A stretch of 22,506 bases of DNA from Glutinoglossum americanum (lineage: Eukaryota > Ascomycota > Geoglossomycetes > Geoglossales > Geoglossaceae), in contig JAGHQL010000268.1 in assembly GCA_020080175.1 (NCBI GenBank), forward strand, positions 1-22,506, given 5' to 3'. A program made the translations under genes and the position numbers. The notes under the pieces are model-generated. The model worked only from the letters and a program-made list of their open reading frames with translations, searched no databases and was not told the origin of the DNA. The number at the start of each line of letters is the position of its first letter. Positions within the stretch are counted from its first letter, which is position 1. Below, in pieces: positions 277 to 22,506 of this stretch.

Positions 277-1597
277 TTTACCCATGGCGCTGACATAGAT
301 GCGGTTGATAAAATCAATAGGACACCGCTTCATGTTGCTGTACGGATGGGGGCAACGGACGCTGTAGCTTTTCTGCTTAGAAATGAAGCAAGGGAGGACA
401 TTGGACATAGCGGGAAGATCTGCCCTTCACTTAGCTTGTCTTGCAGAAGGGACCAAATATACGAATTACGGTCAAATATACGACGGTCTGACTGGACCAC
501 TATTTGGAGGCAAACGCGGTGCAGCGGCTCGCGAGGGTATTGCTCGGGGTCGAATAAATGACCTCGAGCGTAGCCAAAAATACAAGGCCATTGTTCGAAC
601 CCTGCTTGATGCTGGAATAGACCCATTTTTGGTAGACGACTCTGGCTCCACTGCTCTGCATCACGCCTGCCGGGCTGGTAATCACGCCAACGTTCAGGAG
701 ATCCTAGATCACGTCAAAGAATCCATGACCAGGACTGTCGACGGAATGTATCTATTACCTGACATTTGGAACAGATCGGTTGCGGCTTTGCGACGCCCAT
801 GGTTTCCCGTCATGGCGCTTTTGCTCATGAAAAATGGCTGCAACCAGACTCCCCTACACGTCGCTGCGGAAGTTGGGGCCGTCCGGGTACTTTCTGCACT
901 TCTCAACACGAATTGCACCCTTGAGGGCACAGAACCTAAAGTAGTTGCTCGCGTCTCCTTCAAATATCAGGAGCTTTCCGAGCAACAAGCGGAGAAATGC
1001 CCTATCGCGCTTGGGTACCAAATGCTGCAGTTTAAGGAGGCTGCGAGACAGCTTCGAGATATTATAAAATACACTACGGCAGACGGCGCGGCACCAACCA
1101 TCCAATCATGCCCTGCAGCTTGGCTAGATGCAGTGGTCAATTGCTCTGATGTCGTTACTAAACATACGCCCTTAGAGTGCGCCGTCCGTGCGAATCGAGA
1201 TAAGGCTATAGACTATTTATCGCAGCTCCTTTTTGTTAAGCAGCATTTCTCGGCAAGCGGCGGCACCGCGGGCAGACGTCTTCTAGAGCTGGTGGAAAAT
1301 CACGGTCTCGAAGGAACAGCAGCAATCATACAAAGACATCTTTTCCCACAACCAAATAGGAAAGACGCAGCAACTCAGACCGAAGACCGTGAAATTGCAG
1401 CTGCCGAAAGCGATCCTGAGGCCAAGCGGGAGACGCGTCTTTGCCGGTTCAGCATTGGCGGGATGAAAAGGGCAGTGAATCTCATTGAGATAACAGCAGT
1501 AAAGAGAGTATACTACGTCGCACTTGTCCTAGCAGTGATAAACTACCTTTGGGCTCGATGTGGAAGCACCTCAGCTGAACCTGCCGTCGAAAACTGA
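277..1597 (+). pseudogene. Ankyrin-repeat protein with C-terminal membrane helix, frameshifted and 5'-truncated
   Basis: The host ankyrin gene is split over two frames. Frame 1 up to about 400 encodes a repeat with the motif HGADIDAVDKINRTPLHVAV. Frame 2 from about 383 to 1597 continues with GRSALHLACL, then LLDAGIDPFLVDDSGSTALH and NQTPLHVAAEVGAVRVLSAL. The ankyrin match passes directly from one frame to the other near 380-410, and any intron there would remove conserved repeat residues, so a small indel is the best reading. No convincing start codon precedes the first repeat. The frame-2 part is about 400 residues. A hydrophobic segment (VYYVALVLAVINYLWA) lies some 15 residues from its C-terminus and suggests a tail-anchored protein. 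Ankyrin repeats mediate protein binding; the partner is unknown. Alternatives are a sequencing error or programmed slippage. Confidence 0.6.
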
Positions 1598-3018: not shown

Positions 3019-4057
3019 ATGCCTCGACGCTTACCCGACGATGTTCTTCATCGAGTCCTTATTCGTTTGTCTACTTCCGAGCCTGTTCCAAGCATTGCCA
3101 AAGCTGTAGGTGTTGCCCGCGAGACAGTATATCGCATAGAGCGTAATATAGAGCTCTGGGGTACTGCATATCCTCCACCTACGGTTAAACTGGGTCGTCC
3201 ACGCTTACTATTACCATATCAAGAAGAGGTAAGCACCAGGTGATACTATGATACTCTAGATATTGATTTCTGACAGTTTATTACAGAGGTTGATGAAGTT
3301 TTTGAAGGACCGGCCGACTGCATATTTAGATGAGATGCAGCAGTTTATCTACGATGAATACAACGAACTGGAGGTCTCAATAGGTTCCATTCGTTATCTT
3401 CTTGACTGCAGGAAGTGGTCTCGAAAGAAGATGCAGAACCAAGCACTCGAGCAAAATGCAGCTCTACGAACTGCCTGGCGAGGTATTCAAAAATCTTGGG
3501 ACCCAGATCAGCTCGTATTCCTGGACGAATCCAGCGCAAATGAGAGGACTGGCGATAGAAAGTATGGGTGGTCACCCATTGGATTAACTTGTGCTCAATC
3601 AAGACCAATTAAGCGCTCCGAGCGATGGAGCATTTTGCCGGCGCTCACAATCGATGGCTACCTTGATTACATCATTCATCAGGGTGCTATCACGGCTGAT
3701 CTATTTGTCGAATTCATAGAAGAGAGAGTTTTACCACATTGCTCACCGTACCTTGGACCCCAGTCAGTTCTTATTCTCGATAATGCATCAATTCATAAAA
3801 ATCTACGTTTACAACAGCTCTGCAATGAAGCTGAAGTTCTGCTCAGGTTCTTGCCACCCTATTCGCCAGATTACAATCCTATTGAAGCTACGTTTGAAGA
3901 CCTGAAGATGTGGATCAAGAGGAACTACATGCTGGCAGCAGATTTCGAGAATTTCAGCAACTTCTTGGACTTTGCCGTATGTCAAGTATGCAAGGGCAGA
4001 GCAAACGCCAAAGGACACTTTCAAAAGGCAGGATATATTGTAAATCAGCAAGAATAG
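3019..4057 (+). CDS. Tc1-type DD34E transposase (exons 3019-3228, 3287-4057)
   Basis: The predicted protein of about 326 residues catalyses cut-and-paste transposition of the surrounding element. A 58-nt phase-0 intron (GTAAGC..TTACAG, 3229-3286) joins LLPYQEE to RLMKFLKDRP. The N-terminus has a helix-turn-helix type region (SIAKAVGVARETVYRIE) and then a GRPR-like motif (VKLGRPRLL), as in Tc1 DNA-binding domains. The catalytic triad is visible: first D in VFLDESSANE, second D in LILDNASIHKN, and E in PPYSPDYNPIE with 34 residues between the second D and the E. The length is normal for the family and there are no internal stops, so it may be active. The ATG at 3019 is the first in frame and lies about 80 bp inside the left TIR. 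Confidence 0.93.
3229..3286 (+). other. Intron in the transposase gene
   Basis: The donor is GTAAGC and the acceptor TTACAG, with length 58 nt in phase 0. Removing it takes out the in-frame stop and the shift between the two open frames and gives a continuous transposase. Confidence 0.88.
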
Positions 4058-9552: not shown

Positions 9553-12486
9553 TTACTTGTCTATTTCAGGATCGGCCCCCTGGTCGAGGAGAAGCTTGGC
9601 GATCTTCTTATGGCCGTTATCCAAAGCCGTCTGCAGTGCCGTGCGGTGCCAGGCGTCCCGAGTGTTCGGATCCGCCCCCCTGTCGAGGAGAAGCTGGACG
9701 ACCTTCTCGTAGCCGCAACACGAAGCCGTATACAGTGGCGTGCCGAGCCCGTTGTGAATGTTGACATCCGCCCCTCTGTCGAGGAGAAGCTGAACAACCT
9801 CCTCCTGGTCCTGACCCGAAGCCATCTGCAGTGCCGTGCCGTATCGACCGCTCCAAGCGTTAACGTCGGCACCCCTATCGAGGAGAAGCTGGGCGACCTC
9901 CTCATGGCCGTGACACGAAGCCGCCCGCAGCGCGGTACCGTACACGCCCCCCCGAGCGTTAGTGTTGGCGCCCCTATCGAGGAGAACCCGGGCGACCTTG
10001 GAGCCATAGCGCGAAGCCGCTTGCAGCGCGGCACCGTACTTGCCGCCCTGGGCGTTAACGTCGGCACCCCTGCCAAGGAGAAGCTGGGCGATCTTCTCGT
10101 GGCCGTTGGCCAAAGCCGCCTGCAATGCATTACCATACAGGCCGCCTTCAGCGTTCACTTCGGCGCCCCGATCGAGGAGCAGCCGAACTAATTTATCTAA
10201 CCCCAAAACAGAGGCATAGTATAGTGGAGAAGCGATGTCACGCACTTCCATCGCATAGTCTGGTCCTCCCCATCCCTTCCTATCTGGATTGTAAATGAGT
10301 ACCCAATTGAGGAAACATATCGTTTGCGACCAGAGAAGCTCCATACCCAACCTATCTAGAGACGCTGGAGGCGCCTGGTCAACCACTCTCACATGTTGCG
10401 GCCAGTATTGCGCTGCATACCCCAGAAGGGGATATTCCTGGAGTATACGTTCCACGGGCGAATCAGAATCACAGGCTTGCAAAATATATAAGAGACACAT
10501 CTCTGCAATGGAAAGGTTTGCAGTAATCTCAGTGATGCTATATTCTTGTGCCGGTCCATTGCAGATCCGTTGTGAAATAAGATATTCTTTAACGGAGAAA
10601 TGAGCGAGTCTGATCTCCTTCCCGTTTTCTCCCCTATCCTCTTTGTCTCCTTCGTCCCCTCCAGGCGAGGACATCGTGACAAGGCCTGGCAAGAAGCGTA
10701 GAATTTCGAGCGGAGCAAACAATCGGTCCTCAGAATCAAAGCTTGGATCCTCCTCCGGATTCACCACAACCGCTTCTGCAAGTTCCGTTATAAGGAGCGG
10801 GCGAGCGGAGAAGGCAAGCCACTTCAGAGCCGTTAAAGCTTGGTCCTGGCAGTCCTCAGCAATGCCCAGCAACATTCGGTCATAAGTCGCATCCAAGGTC
10901 TTTGGTAGGGATTTCAGGGCCTTCCTTATTTTGCTTGGTTGAGAATAGTTCTGCAAAACATCCAGTTGACACACCACCCACCGAAACCTCCCGGGAGGAA
11001 GATAATAAGCATAGGACCTTTCAATGAATATGTCTGCAGACTCACATTCCACCAGCCTGTTCACTCAGCACGGATTCAACTTCTTCCTTTATTTTAATAG
11101 GCCAAAGGTTAAATCGAACGCCCATAAGACGACTATTTATATGCGTTCTAATATCGTCACTGACGGCGGCTTCCTCGATGCAGATTGGTGCTTCGACGAG
11201 CAAGATTTCCATCGCCTCCTCGATATCAATTTCCCTACGGCTTGTAGCGAGCATGTGAACGCATGCGTTTGACCAGCTGCGAATATCACTGATTAATTTT
11301 AGCAACCTCCCTCTTTCTCCGTCCGTCCTAGGGCACTCGTCCAGTGCATCTAGGATGAGATACACATGTGTGAATACTGTTAAGGTTGTTGATAGTGCTG
11401 CTAGAAGGCCGCCCATTGCAGGTCTCTGATGGCCGTTTTGGCATCTTTTGTACAAGTCTTGTAAAGTATCGGGTGTGTCTACCCTTTGACGGCACAGCTG
11501 TACTAATATCGAGCTAACGAAGCTTCTAGCATCTTGTTTTCCGGTATCGTTGAAATCAAAATAGAAGTATGCAATGGCTGAACCAGGTTCTTGTTCACAT
11601 CGGAATTGAATATAGTCAATAATCGTCGAACTGATATCCTCTCCAGTCAGCATCCCTGCCTAGCATTGCGTTATATATCTTATCACACTTACGACAAGAT
11701 TGTTTTACCACACCCAGCTAATATTATGCATCAGTGAATGCATACAACTGCTATAAGAAAGCCGATGGTAACCTTTCCCGTGCAGCCAGAGCAACGAATT
11801 AGGTGCTGTCTTCCAGCGCTCAAACTCGCTCCGTTTCATCAACCAGCCACCTGTCGATGGCTCATGCTTCTGACGAGCGGCAATTTGATTCTTCGAAGGA
11901 TCGGTACAGGTCAACCAGCTGAGTATGGCATTGCGCTTAACGTCCAGTTGAGCTAGCGCAACAGCATTTCTCAGCTCCGCGACGCTATCGCCGGTAGTGA
12001 GTGCTATGGCCCTGTTGCAGTCAGCACCAGCACCAATGGTATATGATGAGTCCAGCACTGTTACGTATTATCGACTGCTAGAGCAAGCCCCAAATCCTGC
12101 TTGTGCTTCTCGATGCCCGCGATAATCTTAGAGACTTCCTTTTCTTGAAACGGCCAGACCAGAGACTTGCCAAGAGTCTTCCATTTCCCTCCCGGAGGGG
12201 CATCCAGCTTGTTTTGAATGGCTGTTAGCTTCGAATAACACTTCTGAAGCGGACCGTCGGCCTCCGTCAGTAGACCTGATGCCGCAAGGCGAGCGCCACC
12301 CGGGCTCTCAACTAAATCTTTAAGGTTATCGAGGATATCAGTGAGACTAGCCACTCCATCGACGATGCGCTGGATCTCTCTCCGGGCACCTTTCGCGCAA
12401 AAGTAATATTGCTGGCAGGCGGAGCCAACTTTGGTCGCCAGCTGGATTACGGCAACGACACTGGCAGCAACGCTCAGCCCATCCAT
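9553..12486 (-). CDS. NACHT-ankyrin STAND receptor (fungal NLR-like), five exons
   Basis: Exons 12486-12065, 12011-11773, 11717-11693, 11630-11046 and 10987-9553 give a continuous 901-residue protein. Residues 1-140 form a fungal STAND N-terminal helical domain (MDGLSVAASVVAVIQLATKV). A NACHT domain follows. Its Walker A is GKAGCGKT (219-226), built across two introns, its Walker B is LILDALDE (320-327), and a sensor-like MLATSRRE comes next. After it lie the usual KSLPKTLDATYDRML and winged-helix-like region. Residues 677-901 are seven ankyrin repeats. Such proteins are cytosolic signal-regulated ATPases: ligand binding by the repeats allows oligomerisation and exposes the N-terminal effector. 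All key motifs are present, so the gene looks functional. It is divergent from the G-alpha-like gene. Confidence 0.93.
9556..10230 (-). repeat. Seven ankyrin repeats (32-33 codons each) in the NLR gene
   Basis: Each unit follows the pattern GTALxxAxxxGHEEVAQLLLDRGADVN. Units are close to 99 bp at DNA level and strongly alike, so this part of the gene can gain, lose or exchange repeats. The last unit ends at the stop codon. Confidence 0.9.
10988..11045 (-). other. NLR intron 4 (58 nt)
   Basis: The donor is GTGAGT and the acceptor CGGGAG. It joins SEQAGGM to FRWVVCQLDVL, the conserved sequence of this receptor class. Confidence 0.87.
11631..11692 (-). other. NLR intron 3 (62 nt)
   Basis: The donor is GTAAGT and the acceptor GATATCAG, with a CTGAC branch site. 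It follows a 25-nt micro-exon (11693-11717) that encodes most of Walker A. Confidence 0.85.
11718..11772 (-). other. NLR intron 2 (55 nt)
   Basis: The donor is GTTACC and the acceptor ATATTAG. Splicing joins LLWLHGK to AGCGKTIL and so creates the Walker A motif. Confidence 0.88.
12012..12064 (-). other. NLR intron 1 (53 nt)
   Basis: The donor is GTAACA and the acceptor CAACAG, with a GCTGAC branch-like site. It joins AVDN-T to AIALTTGDSV in frame. Confidence 0.85.
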
Positions 12487-13408
12487 GTGCGAGTCAGGCC
12501 GTCAGTAGAAAACCTTGGGTTTATTAAGCCAGCAAGTGTTGATCAACTAAACTCTAAGTTGGAGTAAGACACGGCCACCATGCCGCGATCACTCTACAGC
12601 TATTGGCCAAGAGGAACACTTCTTCCCGCACACAAACATCCTCTTTTTTAGTCCCAACCAGCGCAACCTCCCTATCCCGTGCATTACAGAGCCAGCTATC
12701 CAGATAGGAAATGCTTTTTCTGTTATTTTCTTTTACTTTTTTCCCACCGTATTCTACCCCACAAGATCGGCTCTCAAGATTACAAATACAACCACCACGG
12801 TCGCAAAGGGTCGCGCCGCCACTCGCGACATGGAAGCCAGATCTCGACCTACATCGGTCGTTGGTTGGATAAGTTTCGCGAAACCATTACCATCAAATAT
12901 TATTCCCCGTATTCTCCCCCCGTAGCTACTAGGACGAATCCGGCCACCGTCGATCGTTTTAAACTACAGAGTAGAAATATAAAGCCAACACCTTGTGCCA
13001 ACTTCTCCCCCAGCACGAGAAGCAATCCATCTATCCTGCAATATTACTACGTGTCAAACTCGGCGTTCCTTCGCCCAGCAGCTTCTAAATGGCCCCTGAA
13101 CGGCTTCCCAGCCTTTCCCTCACTTTCCCTCAGGATCACGTGTGTCGAGAAAACGCCCGTAGCAAGATTTTGATCGAAACGGGCAGCTCCATTGTTTCCG
13201 TCTTGCAGAATTAGGGGCTGTATGAGTACAGTTGGGATAATATCCGGCTAAATGTGGTTCGAAGGATTACAGGTGACGGCTGCGTTGATTCGCGGCCCAG
13301 CCTTGTGGCGTCCCATCCAGCACTTCAATTCGGGGCATCTCCAGTTGAACCTACACGCAACCCACATCCTCCATAAACCACCAGAAACCAATTAGCTCTG
13401 AGGTAGCA
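12487..13408. promoter_or_regulatory. Shared divergent promoter region of the NLR and G-alpha-like genes
   Basis: These 922 bp separate the two start codons. The region contains pyrimidine-rich runs (around 12700-12750), typical of fungal promoters, and an ATTGG (CCAAT on minus) at 12602-12606, about 115 bp upstream of the NLR start. An open frame at 12679-13173 has no recognisable domain and is probably fortuitous. No specific regulator site is identified. Confidence 0.5.
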
Positions 13409-15731
13409 ATGAGTCTTGGTATCAGCATCTTTGACTTCTTCGCGATTCCAAACTATGCCTGGCAGATCTACAAGGCATGCAGATCCTCGTCCGACGAGTT
13501 CAACAGCATCGCGGCGGAGGTTGCGGCGTTACACATCGTCCTTAAGGAGACCGAAGAGTATGTCTCTGGCCAGGCTGCGAGTCTTGGCCCTGATCGAGAG
13601 GCCCAACTCATAATCCTGGGGAAAGGATGTCGCGAGGTTCTCCAAGACCTAGAGAGGCTCCTTTTGAGATACGAGAGTCTCGGAACACAGTCACAGCGGA
13701 CCTGGGATAGGATGAAATGGGGGTCAGAGGATATATCAACAGCGCGACAGCGTTTGGCAACTAATACTTCTCTACTTCAAACCTTTAACTTAAATCTCAT
13801 TAAGTACGTTGCGAATAGCTACCTTATCAACCATAAAGCATGTGCTAATATAACTTCAACCGCTCAGCTCCTCCCAAGCGAGAATCGAGGCGAAACTCGA
13901 CAAACTTGTTAACGAAATACGAGCGGGCAAGCGCAGCAGCACGGTTGTTTCTTCCCATACTATCGAATCCCTCTCCAAATATGACCAAGCGGCCTGGCGC
14001 CAATTGCGGAAGGAGCTCGAGGATATGGGGATATCAGTGGCGGTACTGAATGAGCACCGCCAATTCATCACCGATTGGCTCAAGAAAGCAATCGAAGACG
14101 GTGTCTTGCAAGAGCAGTGTCCCGAAGAATTGGGAAACGAAGCTCTCAACGGATCCCCCAGCATGATGATTGAACAAAAAGTATTACCGTGGACGCTGAA
14201 AGAACTAACTTTCTCGACACCTGTCCCTGAAGCAGGCACACCTCGGCCGATGAAGGAACAGAAAACGCGACCCTGGACGCCCTTATCTAGAGCGTTGACC
14301 TCCCCGACACCAGTTCCTGATAACGAAATGCCCCAGCCGGTGAAAGTAAAAAGCATAGAAAAGATCATGGTGCAACTACACCGTTCGCCGTCGGCCCGTT
14401 CGAACAGGACCAGCGATCGACCCGCGCTTCATACACGAGTCAATTCCTTTATATCTAACCTATCTAGGCTATCACTGTTAGATATTCAGCCTCGCAGAGA
14501 CAAGGAAAGTGCAAGAAACGGTGAGATTGAGAAACAGCTGGAGAGGGAGCGTTTAATGCAGAGAAAAGAGATTAAACTCCTCCTGCTAGGTAAATGGCCT
14601 ACTCCAGTTCTCCTGAATGCTACAGAAATCTAACCTAGCCCAGATGACAACGAACCAGGAAACTCCACACTTCTCAAGCAGATTCGTCTCCAGTATTCAG
14701 GGGGGTACACCCCCGACGAACAAGAATCCTACAAATCCCTCATCCTCTCTAACATCCTCCAAAGCATGAAGATCATGCTAAAGGAGGCCGAGCAAGAGGG
14801 TGTATCCCTCGACGGCACAAGCCTAGAACCCTACTCGCGAGCCGTCCAACTACTACAGCCCCTCGGAAACCCCAACGAAAAGACGCCACCGGCAGCTAAG
14901 ACTGCCATCAGGGTGCTGTGGGGGAACCCGCGGCTACAACAGATACTCAGACGAGCTAGTGAGTATAAGCGCAATAGAGCAGCTCGGTAGTATGTCTCCT
15001 CATCCACAACCAAACACAGCAGAGTTTAACCAATATTCTTTCTAGCTACCTCAGCTCCATCGACCGCATCACAGCACCCACCTACCGCCCAACCGACAAA
15101 GACATCCTCCACGCCCGCGCAAAAACTACAGGTGTCACCGAACAACGCTTCGACATGCCCACCCTAACCTACCGAATATTTGACACCATCTACCCCGAAA
15201 AGCGCCAGCTAGTCCAATACTTCGAGAAAGTGACCGCGATAATCTTCTCTATCGACCTGGCGGATTCGGATCGGGTGGCTGATCAGAATAAGGAGACCTG
15301 TTTACTTCAGGAGGATATTGCGCAGTTTGACGCGGTTTGCAATTCGAGGTGCTTCGTCAAGACGCCAGTCATACTCTATTTCAACAACACGGATTGTTTT
15401 TATGATAAACTCAATCTCCCTCCTCTGTCTGCCCAGTTTCCAGACTACAAAGGTATGTGATGCCATACACTCCATGAATTCAAAAAACCTCCCAACAACA
15501 CTATACATGTACGCACAAAAGCTAAAATCTCCCCCAGGGGGCTCCGACAACCTCGCCGCACTCGATTATATTCGCGATTACTTCCAGCGCCTCAACCGGA
15601 ACCCGAACAGAGATCTGTACATACACCTATCGCCCTCGATGGACACGTCCCAGTTCCGCGTCATCGAGAGAGCGATCAACAATATCATGCTCCAGACAAA
15701 CGTGGATGGGATCCTTCAAACATATATATGA
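13409..15731 (+). CDS. G-protein alpha-like protein with fungal STAND/HeLo-like N-terminal domain and degenerate GTP site, five exons
   Basis: Exons 13409-13803, 13868-14589, 14644-14989, 15046-15452 and 15538-15731 give 687 residues. Residues 1-132 resemble the helical N-terminal domains of fungal STAND proteins. A long linker follows. From about residue 345 the protein follows a heterotrimeric G-alpha: EIEKQLERERLMQRKEIKLL, RRASEYKRNRAARYYLSSID, DILHARAKTTGV, FEKVTAIIFSIDLADSD, FPDYKG and a C-terminal helix. The GTP-binding motifs are altered. GAGESGKST reads DDNEPGNST (373-381), DVGGQ reads DTIYP (534-538), NKxD reads NNTD (601-604) and TCAT reads SPSM (655-658). The switch I RxKTTG motif (R512) is kept. 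Nucleotide binding is therefore unlikely, and a scaffold or decoy role is inference. The reading frame is intact through all four introns, which argues against a dead gene. Confidence 0.88.
13804..13867 (+). other. G-alpha-like intron 1 (64 nt)
   Basis: The donor is GTACGT and the acceptor CGCTCAG, with a CTAAT branch site. It joins FNLNLIN to SSQARIEAKL. Confidence 0.82.
14590..14643 (+). other. G-alpha-like intron 2 (54 nt) at the P-loop
   Basis: The donor is GTAAAT and the acceptor CCCAG. It joins KLLLL to DDNEPGNSTLL. The alternative acceptor CCTAG at 14638 would put the rest of the gene out of frame. Confidence 0.8.
14990..15045 (+). other. G-alpha-like intron 3 (56 nt)
   Basis: The donor is GTATGT and the acceptor TTCTAG. 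It joins RNRAARY to YLSSIDRI as expected for G-alpha. Confidence 0.88.
15453..15537 (+). other. G-alpha-like intron 4 (85 nt)
   Basis: The donor is GTATGT and the acceptor CCCCCAG. It joins FPDYKG to GSDNLAALDYI. Confidence 0.87.
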
Positions 15732-17060: not shown

Positions 17061-18336
17061 CTAGTCAATCTCCGCCTTCTTGAGAGTGCCAACACCGTCT
17101 TTACGGTCGGGAGCTCTCCGCGACTCGGAGTTGGAGTCTCTGTTGAACTTTCGCCAAAGTTCGGCAATGTCGTCTTTATTCTCATTCTTCTCGGTGATGA
17201 GGTTCTTGAGCCACTTGTTCTCCATCTCCAGTTGCCCGATCCGCGCCTCGAGCCGCGAGCACTTGTCGGTCATCTCCTTGGCCGTGCGTTCGAGCGCCTG
17301 CTCTCGCTGCTTCTTTTTGACGCGGAAGCGCGCACTAGCAGCCGTATTGCGCCGACGCTTGTCCTCCTCGGCCGCAATTCGCGAGGCTCCTTCAAGGGAA
17401 GGCACTTGGTTGGGATCCACGATGGAATCAGCCTTCCGTTTGTCGCCGCTAGTGTTAGAGGTGAAGTCCGAGGGCGGGGTGTTGGCGATGGGGGACGACA
17501 GGTTTGGTGGGGGATGATCAAGGGTTTGAATTCCACCCGAAGTGGAGTCACCGAGGGCGTTTGGAAACTCCGAAAAGTCAGAGAATTGATAGTCGCCTAT
17601 AAGGACCCGCGCTCAGAAAATTAGCCAAAAATTAAGAATAGATTGGAAAGGACAAGCCGCGCGAATAGCTTGTAGTTGGCAGGTAAGTTGATAAAGAATG
17701 CCGAAGTCACGACGGATGGCGTGCTTCGGCAATTGAGAATAGGAAATAGGGAAAAGACGCCCACGAAAATAAAGTGGCCACTCATCTCCCCGGTCGGGGC
17801 GAGCAAGTTAATGCAAATACACCCGTGACGAACAGGCACAGCGGTAGATTGGGTGGTGGTTCCAACCGTCGTCAAACGCCCCCGAAAGACGAGGAGTGTC
17901 AGGTAGATTGCTGTACAGCATCAAATGATCCATACTAAAGTGAACCCTGTGAACTCCAGCAGGAAACACCCAGCTGGAATTGGAGAAATTGGAGAAATTG
18001 GACAAGTTGGAGGAGGCGACGACTGAATACACACGCGCAACAGAAAGGAGCTTGCTTACCACCAAGGAAGTCAAGGTCCTTCATGCCGTGCTTGTGTGCC
18101 GCTGCATTCTCCCTCCTCGCTCTAAGTTCGTGCTCAGGATCGTATTCCACCAACGCATGGCTCTCACCCATATCAAAGTCGAAGAACTGCGTGTTGGTAA
18201 AGAGTGCCAGGTCGTCTTCGAGACCAAAGGAATCTTGCTGCTGCTGCGAGGCAAGATCATGAGCCGACGGGATGGTATTGAGAGTGGCAATGTACTGCGA
18301 GACATTCGGCGCGCGACGACCGATGAAGGCAGACAT
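17061..18336 (-). CDS. metR: CYS3/MetR-family bZIP sulfur regulator (exons 18336-18060, 17596-17061)
   Basis: The predicted protein has 270 residues. The N-terminus MSAFIGRRAPNVSQYIATLN and the LALFTNTQFFDFDMGES segment are characteristic of Aspergillus-type MetR. The bZIP is at residues 172-230: basic region NTAASARFRVKKKQREQ (N176 and R184 in the N-x7-R spacing), then a zipper containing LEARIGQLEMENKWLKNLI. The family activates sulfate-assimilation and sulfur-scavenging genes when sulfur is limiting, and acts as a nuclear dimer. A 463-nt intron (GTAAGC..TTATAG) joins DFLG to GDYQFSDF. It is far longer than other introns here, so an unseen small exon or a regulatory intron is possible. The MetZ-like paralogue of the same family is the main alternative identity. 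Confidence 0.86.
17597..18059 (-). other. Long intron (463 nt) in the bZIP gene
   Basis: The donor is GTAAGC and the acceptor ATAG, with phase-1 joining that restores one frame across 813 coding bases. It contains a degenerate 9-bp tandem repeat (ATTGGAGAA) at 17979-18014. Other introns in the window are 53-111 nt. Confidence 0.75.
17979..18014. repeat. Four degenerate 9-bp units (ATTGGAGAA)
   Basis: The first two units are identical and the next two diverge. The array lies inside the bZIP gene intron close to the donor side. Confidence 0.75.
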
Positions 18337-21558: not shown

Positions 21559-22466
21559 ATGTCCGCCTCCTCCTCTTCAGACCAACCTCCCCCGCCCAAT
21601 CTCCGCTTCGTCGACGTTCGTTGCCCCCTTCCCTCCTTCCCCTAAAAGCAACCCCCATATGCAAACAACCAACCCTCCCCCCAACATAGATCGGCATAAA
21701 CCTCACCGACCCCGTCTACACGGGCGTCTACCACGGGAAAAAAGCCCACGACGACGACCTAGCCGACGTCGTGGCCCGCGCAAAGGCGGTGGGGTGCACG
21801 AAGATGCTAGTCACGGCTTCGGACCTCGAGAGCGCGAAGAGGGCGAGCGAGGTTGCGGGGATGTTTCGTAAGATATATTTATTACTATATACATATATTT
21901 TCCCCTTTTCAAAAAAAAAAAAAGTCTTCGTACTATGGTAGCAATGAGAACTGACGAGGAAGGTATACGAACACACAGCGGGAACATGCTACACCACAAT
22001 CGGCATCCACCCTTGCTCGACCTCCCAAATCCCACACCCGGCATCAGCACACCTAACCGCGCTCCTCCACCTCGCGCAGACCCTCCTCTCCACCCCATCC
22101 CCGCCCCTCCTCGCCTTCGGCGAGCTAGGCCTCGACTACGACCGCCTCCACCTCTCCCCGCGCCCCACGCAACTCCAGTACTTCACCGCGCAGCTCGACA
22201 TCGCCGCGCAGGTGGGCCTCCCGCTGTTCCTCCACTCGCGGGCCGCGCACGCGGACTTCGTGGGCGCGCTGGCGGGGGTTCTGGATCGCCTGCCGAGGAG
22301 GGGCGTCGTGCACAGCTTCACGGGGACCAGGGAGGAGATGCTCGAGCTCGTCGGTATGGGGTTCGATGTCGGCGTGAACGGGTGCAGCATGAAAACCCCG
22401 GAGAACGCCGCCGTGGTGAGGGACATACCCCTCGAACGCATCCAGCTCGAAACCGATGGCCCCTGG
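21559..22466 (+). CDS. TatD-family metal-dependent nuclease, 5' part (exons 21559-21615, 21690-21867, 21979-22466)
   Basis: The first 241 residues are present; the gene continues beyond the window. MSASSSSDQ.. leads to RFVD, joined across a 74-nt intron (GTTCGT..ACATAG) to IGINLTDPVYTG, the start of eukaryotic TATDN1-type proteins. A second intron of 111 nt (GTAAGA..ACACAG, CTGAC branch) joins AGMF to PGTCYTTIGIHPC. Metal-site residues are visible: E127 in FGELGLDYDR, H164 in LFLHSR, H190 in VVHSFTGT and D238 in LETDGPW. The TIM-barrel enzyme is a 3'-5' exonuclease/endonuclease linked to DNA repair and apoptotic DNA degradation. Exon 3 most likely ends at TGG|GTAGGC, immediately before a poly-C run. 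Confidence 0.9.
21616..21689 (+). other. TatD intron 1 (74 nt)
   Basis: The donor is GTTCGT and the acceptor ACATAG, in phase 0. It joins FVD to IGINLTD. Confidence 0.87.
21868..21978 (+). other. TatD intron 2 (111 nt)
   Basis: The donor is GTAAGA and the acceptor ACACAG, with ACTGAC as branch site. It contains a 13-A run. Earlier AGs near 21958-21962 would not keep frame. Confidence 0.8.
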
Positions 22467-22471
22467 GTAGG

Positions 22472-22499
22472 CCCCCCCCCCCCCCCTCCCCCCCCCCCC
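22472..22499. repeat. Near-pure poly-C tract
   Basis: Fifteen C, one T and twelve C follow directly after the presumed third donor site of the TatD gene. Such a run is prone to length polymorphism and to sequencing error at a contig edge. Confidence 0.85.
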
Positions 22500-22506
22500 A
22501 CACCCC

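What the first reader, a model, noticed from the sequence alone, without database searches (positions are those of the whole stretch)
13409..15731. Pseudo-G-alpha fused to an immune-type N-terminal domain
Seen: the protein keeps the G-alpha backbone and the switch I RxKTTG motif, but P-loop GAGESGKST is DDNEPGNST, DVGGQ is DTIYP, NKxD is NNTD and TCAT is SPSM, while five exons remain in perfect frame. Known: those motifs bind GTP and magnesium in every active G-alpha. Inference: a nucleotide-free G-alpha mimic carrying a HeLo/STAND-like N-terminal domain could be a decoy or adaptor that senses tampering with G-protein signalling.
Basis: partly seen in the sequence, partly recalled or inferred. 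Interest (0 to 1): 0.78.

Follow-up and report, generated by a model that had tools for sequence, protein, structure and literature searches.

The report
Altered G-alpha fused to immune-type domain
A fungal gene joins a helical domain resembling those of fungal immune receptors to a G-alpha signalling protein whose GTP-handling parts are largely rewritten, and a second, independently made fusion of similar kind sits in the same genome, so it looks like a working protein with a new use rather than a dead gene.

Summary
Five GT-AG exons (13409-15731, +) encode 687 aa: a HeLo-like/SesA-type N-terminal module, a linker with an internal duplication, and a full-length G-alpha domain (PF00503, 246 bits). 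P-loop, switch II, switch III and TCAT are rewritten; switch I RAKTTG and the N and D of NKxD are kept, so loss of nucleotide binding is likely but not shown. Conservation is inverted: canonical G-alphas of this genome agree 0.76-0.95 in switch/nucleotide segments and 0.36-0.60 elsewhere; this protein agrees with its nearest relative 0.30 and 0.44. Neutral drift does not explain the open frame (0 of 300 simulations stop-free). Intron positions trace it to a GNA-1-type gene. A second such fusion (contig C181) arose separately from a GNA-3-type gene (one clade rejected, AU p 2.4e-5), with selective motif loss (p 0.003). Best reading: a nucleotide-independent G-alpha-shaped docking module on a HeLo-like signalling domain, comparable to plant XLGs or integrated decoys; the decoy role is inference. 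Ten paper searches listed no paper on this architecture; no fungal genome but this one could be searched.

The parts
13409..13803 (+). Exon 1: N-terminal HeLo-like/SesA-type module, first part (131 codons and 2 bases)
   Evidence: PF17111 21.9 bits (below cut-off 27.2), aa 24-121; homologues on contigs C65, C288, C51, C91 at 47, 48, 38, 31%; single-sequence AF2 gives four long helices, mean pLDDT 61.7
13804..13867 (+). Intron 1 (GTACGT..CAG), phase 2; alternative in-frame acceptor at 13882
   Evidence: first exon also ends in phase 2 in homologues C65 and C288
13868..14589 (+). Exon 2: rest of N-terminal module (to about aa 215), linker, alphaN helix, beta1
14181..14345 (+). Duplicated linker unit (aa 237-264 and 265-291; PWT...LT..TPVP....P.P.K)
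   Evidence: units picked by eye; local score 60, reached by 0 of 1000 shuffles
14644..14989 (+). Exon 3: altered P-loop DDNEPGNST, alpha1, most of the helical domain
15046..15452 (+). Exon 4: end of helical domain, switch I RAKTTG kept, shortened switch II (DT--IYPEKRQ), rewritten switch III, NNTD
15538..15731 (+). Exon 5: end of the Ras-like domain, SPSM in place of TCAT, altered C-terminus, stop
9553..12501 (-). Divergent neighbour: NLR with HeLo-like-type N-terminal region, NACHT-type NTPase (NPHP3_N) and ankyrin repeats; outer limits of ORFs, not a gene model
   Evidence: separate ORFs: PF17111 23.6 bits (below cut-off), PF24883 89.3 bits, Ank_2 157.9 bits

Best explanation
The gene makes a G-alpha-shaped protein that no longer runs a normal GTP cycle and is used as a docking or bait module on a HeLo-like signalling domain. 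Shown from sequence: an intact spliced frame; fold segments kept about as well as between canonical paralogues while the normally strictest nucleotide and switch segments are rewritten; an N-terminal module allied to the HeLo-like/SesA class; descent from a GNA-1-type gene by a DNA-level fusion; and a second fusion in the same genome of separate origin. Inferred: the G-alpha domain holds one shape and binds partners of a real G-alpha (most plausibly G-beta-gamma through the retained alphaN helix) without nucleotide; binding, or disturbance of that complex, changes the assembly or membrane action of the helical domain, as in a decoy or adaptor of the fungal non-self/cell-death network.
For: Gene model and motifs. 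PF00503 246 bits. Inverted conservation: segments 19 of 63 identical to GNA-1, rest 119 of 271 (p 0.048); six canonical pairs 0.76-0.95 against 0.36-0.60; of canonical-invariant columns 18 of 47 kept in segments and 40 of 58 elsewhere, p 0.003. alphaN 0.53 identical to GNA-1 against a mean of 0.31 for canonical pairs. Neutral-drift runs 0 of 300 stop-free at 41.5, 55 and 64.5% identity. Three G-alpha introns at the same column and phase as GNA-1, one of them (column 294) in no other of the five gene models compared. Second fusion on C181: 568 aa, G-alpha 326.6 bits, P-loop GTADSGKDD, switch I Arg and Lys missing, SNVS for NKxD, 64% identical to GNA-3, pN/pS 0.28. One clade of the two fusions is rejected (AU p 2.35e-5). 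18 of 33 HeLo-like-type matches of this genome lead a NACHT-type match.
Against: No binding, expression or phenotype data. On the five short motifs alone the window protein keeps 12 of 24 columns against 46 of 81 others (p 0.64), so loss there is not selective. Not every fold segment is kept well: alpha1, beta4, alpha3, the beta6 region and alpha5 are below the canonical mean, and switch I (0.58) is one of the best-kept segments. The switch II half of the G-beta-gamma surface, with the Trp of KKW, is lost. Residues able to hold nucleotide partly remain. Synonymous sites are saturated, so pN/pS is only indicative. The C181 N-terminal domain reaches only 14.6 bits for PF17111. Foldseek gave no PDB match at E<=0.001 for either domain model, and no HET-S or MLKL chain is among the 50 listed for the window's domain. 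Of the four nearest N-terminal homologues two precede ankyrin repeats, one a coiled-coil-like tail by eye, one is unresolved; none is seen to precede NACHT.
Confidence: 0.4

Rival explanations
1. An atypical G-protein subunit outside immunity: a nucleotide-independent competitor that sequesters G-beta-gamma or a G-alpha effector, the helical N-terminal domain serving only oligomerisation or localisation.
For: alphaN retained; canonical G-alphas coexist in the genome (three whole, one split over two contig ends); the nearest N-terminal homologues whose tail is known sit on ankyrin proteins, not NLRs; plant XLG precedent (PMC8584482, passages).
Against: Switch II surface altered; two separate joins to domains of the NLR-type class are more than mere oligomerisation needs, though the second is a weak match.
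Confidence: 0.28
2. It still binds guanine nucleotide in an unusual way and remains a switch.
For: Switch I R and T, P-loop ST, and N and D of NKxD remain; switch I is 0.58 identical to GNA-1.
Against: P-loop Lys replaced by Asn, the first P-loop Gly by Asp, switch II shortened, TCAT gone.
Confidence: 0.17
3. A gene on the way to becoming a pseudogene: selection relaxed recently enough that the frame is still intact.
For: Long branch, 1.52 changes per column; motif columns lost no less than other invariant columns; neutral drift to 75% identity still left 2 of 300 runs stop-free, so a recent relaxation of limited extent is not excluded.
Against: Neutral drift to 41.5, 55 or 64.5% identity left stops in 300 of 300 runs each; all splice sites GT-AG; pN/pS 0.45 with saturated synonymous sites; no RIP signature, TpA/ApT 0.80, thresholds recalled.
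Confidence: 0.1

Closest known systems
Plant extra-large G proteins (XLG1-3)
   Same: Long N-terminal extension plus a G-alpha-like C-terminal half with poor nucleotide binding; XLG2 is described as likely nucleotide-free and able to act in defence without GTP binding (PMC8584482, passages).
   Different: The XLG N-terminal part is described as cysteine-rich with NLS and NES, not HeLo-like; plant lineage; here two fusions of separate origin lie in one fungal genome.
Fungal group I and III G-alphas (GNA-1/FadA and GNA-3/GanB types; labels recalled)
   Same: Same domain along its length; 41.5% (window to GNA-1) and 64% (C181 to GNA-3) identity; the window gene shares three intron positions with GNA-1.
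   Different: The usual MGxx start is replaced by an extension of about 345 residues; nucleotide and switch segments rewritten.
HeLo-like (PF17111) / SesA (PF17107) domains of fungal NLRs and their effectors
   Same: N-terminal module of the same class; use as N-terminal domain of fungal NLRs described in PMC4986451 and PMC9815663 (passages).
   Different: Here on a G-alpha instead of a NACHT; sub-threshold profile score for the window domain itself.
Extra, unclassified G-alpha-domain genes in Aspergillus
   Same: PMC5307856 (passage) reports three further G-alpha-domain ortholog groups in A. niger, A. flavus and A. oryzae besides groups I-III.
   Different: The passage gives no architecture or motif status; kinship with the window gene is untested.
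Integrated decoys of plant NLRs (recalled, no call)
   Same: A mimic of a signalling protein fused to an immune-type module.
   Different: No NTPase in this protein and no pathogen effector known.

Membership tests
Heterotrimeric G-alpha (by descent) | Full-length match to PF00503 above cut-off | tested here: met
   246.4 bits against 48.8, positions 2-332 of 333
Heterotrimeric G-alpha (functional GTPase) | Canonical P-loop, DxGGQ, NKxD and TCAT motifs | tested here: not met
   DDNEPGNST, DT--I(YP), NNTD, SPSM
Heterotrimeric G-alpha (functional GTPase) | Measured GTP binding and hydrolysis | not testable with these tools
   needs purified protein
HeLo-like / SesA domain | Profile match above curated cut-off | tested here: inconclusive
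   Window domain 21.9 bits against 27.2; its homologue on C65 (46% in alignment A1) passes SesA, 27.2 against 26.3
HeLo-like / SesA domain | Four-helix-bundle fold like HET-S/MLKL | tested here: inconclusive
   Helical model of low confidence; 0 Foldseek matches at E<=0.001 of 131 at E<=10, no HET-S or MLKL chain among the 50 listed
Plant XLG | Cysteine-rich N-terminal region and kinship to plant XLG | tested here: inconclusive
   N-terminal region is HeLo-like-type and the G-alpha part is nearest to GNA-1 of the same genome, but no plant XLG sequence was compared
Fungal NLR (STAND) | NACHT or NB-ARC domain in the same protein | tested here: not met
   Only G-alpha, an Arf overlap and PigL_N were hit in the 687 aa at E<=1

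The most novel reading that the evidence does not exclude
Fungi repeatedly turn duplicated G-alpha genes into nucleotide-dead, immune-domain-tagged decoys that monitor heterotrimeric G-protein signalling: a convergent class of integrated-decoy G-alphas, of which this genome holds at least two of independent origin.
Probability: 0.25. Interest if true: 0.87.

Novelty: new variant of a known kind. Interest (0 to 1): 0.62.

Why it matters
G-alpha proteins are the textbook GTP switch. Two G-alpha lineages in one fungus that rewrote the switch, kept the fold and were each joined to an N-terminal domain resembling those of NLRs would link heterotrimeric G-protein signalling to fungal innate immunity. 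My term look-ups in four fungal NLR and cell-death papers showed no such link (terms differed by paper). It would also give a non-plant parallel to XLGs and a handle for direct tests of GTP-independent G-alpha function.

Tried and rejected
Alternative frames that would restore canonical motifs: none in the two stretches scanned. Two further G-alpha matches in the genome (C121, C60) read by eye as ARF- and ARL-like proteins, not extra pseudo-G-alphas. Close kinship of the N-terminal domains of the window protein and its NLR neighbour: hhalign probability 23%, E 9e-4, so not close. NLR adjacency as strong evidence: rejected; about 4% expected by chance with 156 NACHT-type matches. That family also rang in 9 of 14 control prokaryote genomes (over the cut-off in 5), so not every match need be an NLR. 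RIP decay: no signal. Relatives elsewhere: 2 scans of viral contigs and 1 of bacterial/archaeal genome contigs confirmed none; no fungal collection is held, so orthologue dN/dS was impossible. A G-gamma search found nothing, but its control rang nowhere, so it says nothing. Two single-sequence AF2 jobs gave low-confidence, mainly helical models; Foldseek gave nothing at E<=0.001. Tree placement of the window protein: with GNA-1 only weakly (61/56); groupings with GNA-3 plus C181 (AU p 0.054) or with G-alpha-o (p 0.138) are not rejected. Ten paper searches: 0, 17, 0, 1, 0, 5, 2, 22, 21 and 304 papers held the terms, of which 0, 15, 0, 1, 0, 5, 2, 8, 10 and 12 were listed; I judged by titles, abstract starts and, for seven papers, passages or term counts.

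Full report
What is there. The window is the whole of contig C188 of a 25.8 Mb, 317-contig genome that looks fungal by gene content. On the plus strand from 13409 to 15731 lies a five-exon gene with GT-AG introns of 54 to 85 bases and an open frame of 687 codons. Spliced alignment with the genome's own GNA-1-type protein recovers the same inner exon limits in the G-alpha part. The first intron has two possible in-frame acceptors, 13867 and 13882, so the product is 687 or 682 residues. Pfam places a G-alpha domain at residues 347-673 with 246 bits, nearly end to end, and a sub-threshold PigL_N hit (PF17111, called HeLo-like in PMC9815663, passages) at residues 24-121. The labels GNA-1, GNA-2 and GNA-3 for the canonical G-alphas are mine, from recall.

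The motifs. P-loop GAGESGKST is DDNEPGNST; DVGGQ aligns with DT--I, switch II being two residues shorter; NKID is NNTD; TCAT is SPSM; RVKTTG is RAKTTG. No frame in the stretches scanned hides a canonical motif.

Is it maintained? Substitution-only drift of the GNA-1 coding sequence until identity fell to 41.5% left 0 of 300 runs free of stops (mean 10.2); at 55% and 64.5% also 0 of 300; at 75%, 2 of 300. pN/pS against GNA-1 is 0.45 with synonymous sites saturated, like 0.42 and 0.45 between canonical pairs, so this measure is only indicative. No RIP signature.

What was kept and what was lost. Between the four canonical G-alphas of this genome (six pairs) the switch and nucleotide segments are 0.76-0.95 identical and the rest 0.36-0.60. 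In the window protein against GNA-1 the order is reversed: 19 of 63 (0.30) in the segments, 119 of 271 (0.44) elsewhere (p 0.048); of canonical-invariant columns 18 of 47 are kept in segments and 40 of 58 elsewhere (p 0.003). By region, the best kept are beta1 (0.86), switch I (0.58), beta5 (0.55) and alphaN (0.53, against a canonical mean of 0.31); the helical domain is at 0.41 (mean 0.33). The worst are switch III (0.06), the beta6 region (0.21), switch II (0.25) and TCAT (0.25). Against this reading: alpha1, beta4, alpha3, the beta6 region and alpha5 are below their canonical means, and when only the five short motifs are counted the window protein keeps 12 of 24 motif columns and 46 of 81 others, no difference (p 0.64). 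So the whole protein has diverged, but the normally strictest segments have lost their protection.

Origin. The three introns inside the G-alpha part fall at the same alignment column and phase as in GNA-1 (columns 41, 156, 294); column 294 is occupied only by GNA-1 and the window gene among the five gene models compared. Identity is highest to GNA-1 (0.415). The tree puts them together only weakly (61/56), and does not reject placing the window protein with GNA-3 plus C181 (AU p 0.054) or with G-alpha-o (p 0.138), so the intron evidence carries this point. The N-terminal module has homologues on contigs C65, C288, C51 and C91 (47, 48, 38, 31%). In C65 and C288 its first exon ends in the same phase 2 and ankyrin repeats follow (read by eye). 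So the gene looks like a DNA-level join of the front end of such a gene to a GNA-1-type gene.

A second case. The highest-scoring single G-alpha match of the six-frame genome search, on C181 (intron-poor, hence long), is another fusion: 568 aa, an N-terminal domain with a 14.6-bit, clearly sub-threshold PF17111 hit, then a G-alpha domain of 326.6 bits. Its P-loop is GTADSGKDD, switch I lacks Arg and Lys (--CTTG), DVGGQ is DIGEQ, NKxD is SNVS, TCAT is TNAD. It is 64% identical to GNA-3 and grouped with it at 100/100. pN/pS against GNA-3 is 0.28 with synonymous sites saturated. Its motif loss is selective: 12 of 24 motif columns kept against 66 of 81 others, p 0.003; with the wider segments 24 of 47 against 54 of 58, p 1e-6. 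A clade of the two fusions is rejected (AU p 2.35e-5; with long rows such a test shares the model's pull). Thus two G-alpha genes were separately joined to N-terminal domains, one allied to the HeLo-like class and one weakly so, and both rewrote the nucleotide machinery.

Immune connection. The window gene is divergent from such an NLR (9553-12501, minus), but a randomly placed 2.3 kb gene would have a NACHT match that near about 4% of the time. No NLR was seen at C181 (ORFs read by eye; none in the capped list). The N-terminal domains of the window protein and its NLR neighbour are not close kin (hhalign probability 23%). AF2 on single sequences gave mainly helical models of low confidence (61.7 and 67.9 mean pLDDT). 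Foldseek found nothing at E<=0.001 for either. The window domain's 50 listed matches hold no HET-S or MLKL chain; the NLR's domain lists four MLKL-domain chains, at E of 0.45 and above, with a bacterial IncA chain ahead of them.

How it may work. The most likely reading is a nucleotide-independent, G-alpha-shaped docking surface attached to a HeLo-like signalling domain. Plant XLGs set the precedent: very low GTP-gamma-S binding, likely nucleotide-free, functional in defence without GTP binding (PMC8584482, passages). The decoy step, the partner and the output are inferred. Rivals are a plain G-beta-gamma or effector competitor, an unusual nucleotide binder, and a gene in decay; see the rival list.

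Novelty. The ten paper searches listed no paper that by title or abstract start describes the architecture. Term look-ups gave 0 for 'g-alpha' in PMC9815663, PMC4986451, PMC10197012 and PMC12881547, and 0 for 'g protein' in the last three (not asked in the first); PMC9815663 has 'GTP-binding' once, in the title of a 1995 reference on an incompatibility gene. PMC5307856 reports extra unclassified G-alpha-domain genes in Aspergillus (passage), so further members may already lie unremarked in databases. No fungal genome other than the window's own could be searched, so neither spread nor orthologue selection is known. I rate it a new variant of a known kind.

Noticed in passing
G000:C181:8144-9962 (locus L001, minus strand): Second N-terminal-domain/G-alpha fusion, GNA-3-derived, with rewritten motifs; of the five GNA-3 intron positions in the G-alpha part it keeps one.
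   Followed up: yes
window 9553-12501 (-): NLR with NACHT-type NTPase and ankyrin repeats, divergent to the fusion gene.
   Followed up: partly
window 3260-4057 (+): DDE_3 transposase ORF, 109.7 bits; Tc1/mariner-like by recall.
   Followed up: no
window 368-1597 (+): ORF with ankyrin repeats (Ank_2 55.1 bits) and a hydrophobic stretch near its end by eye.
   Followed up: no
window 14181-14345 (+): Duplicated Pro-rich linker unit between the two domains of the fusion protein; could be a ligand motif.
   Followed up: partly
G000:C11 end and C88 start (L005, L008): A fourth canonical G-alpha, a GNA-2-type duplicate, appears split over two contig ends.
   Followed up: no
whole genome G000: 156 NACHT-type (NPHP3_N) matches, a lower bound, in 25.8 Mb; some genes give more than one match.
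   Followed up: no
window 17061-17612 (-) and 21948-22505 (+): By eye, a bZIP-like basic region with leucine zipper and a TatD-like nuclease ORF; not tested.
   Followed up: no
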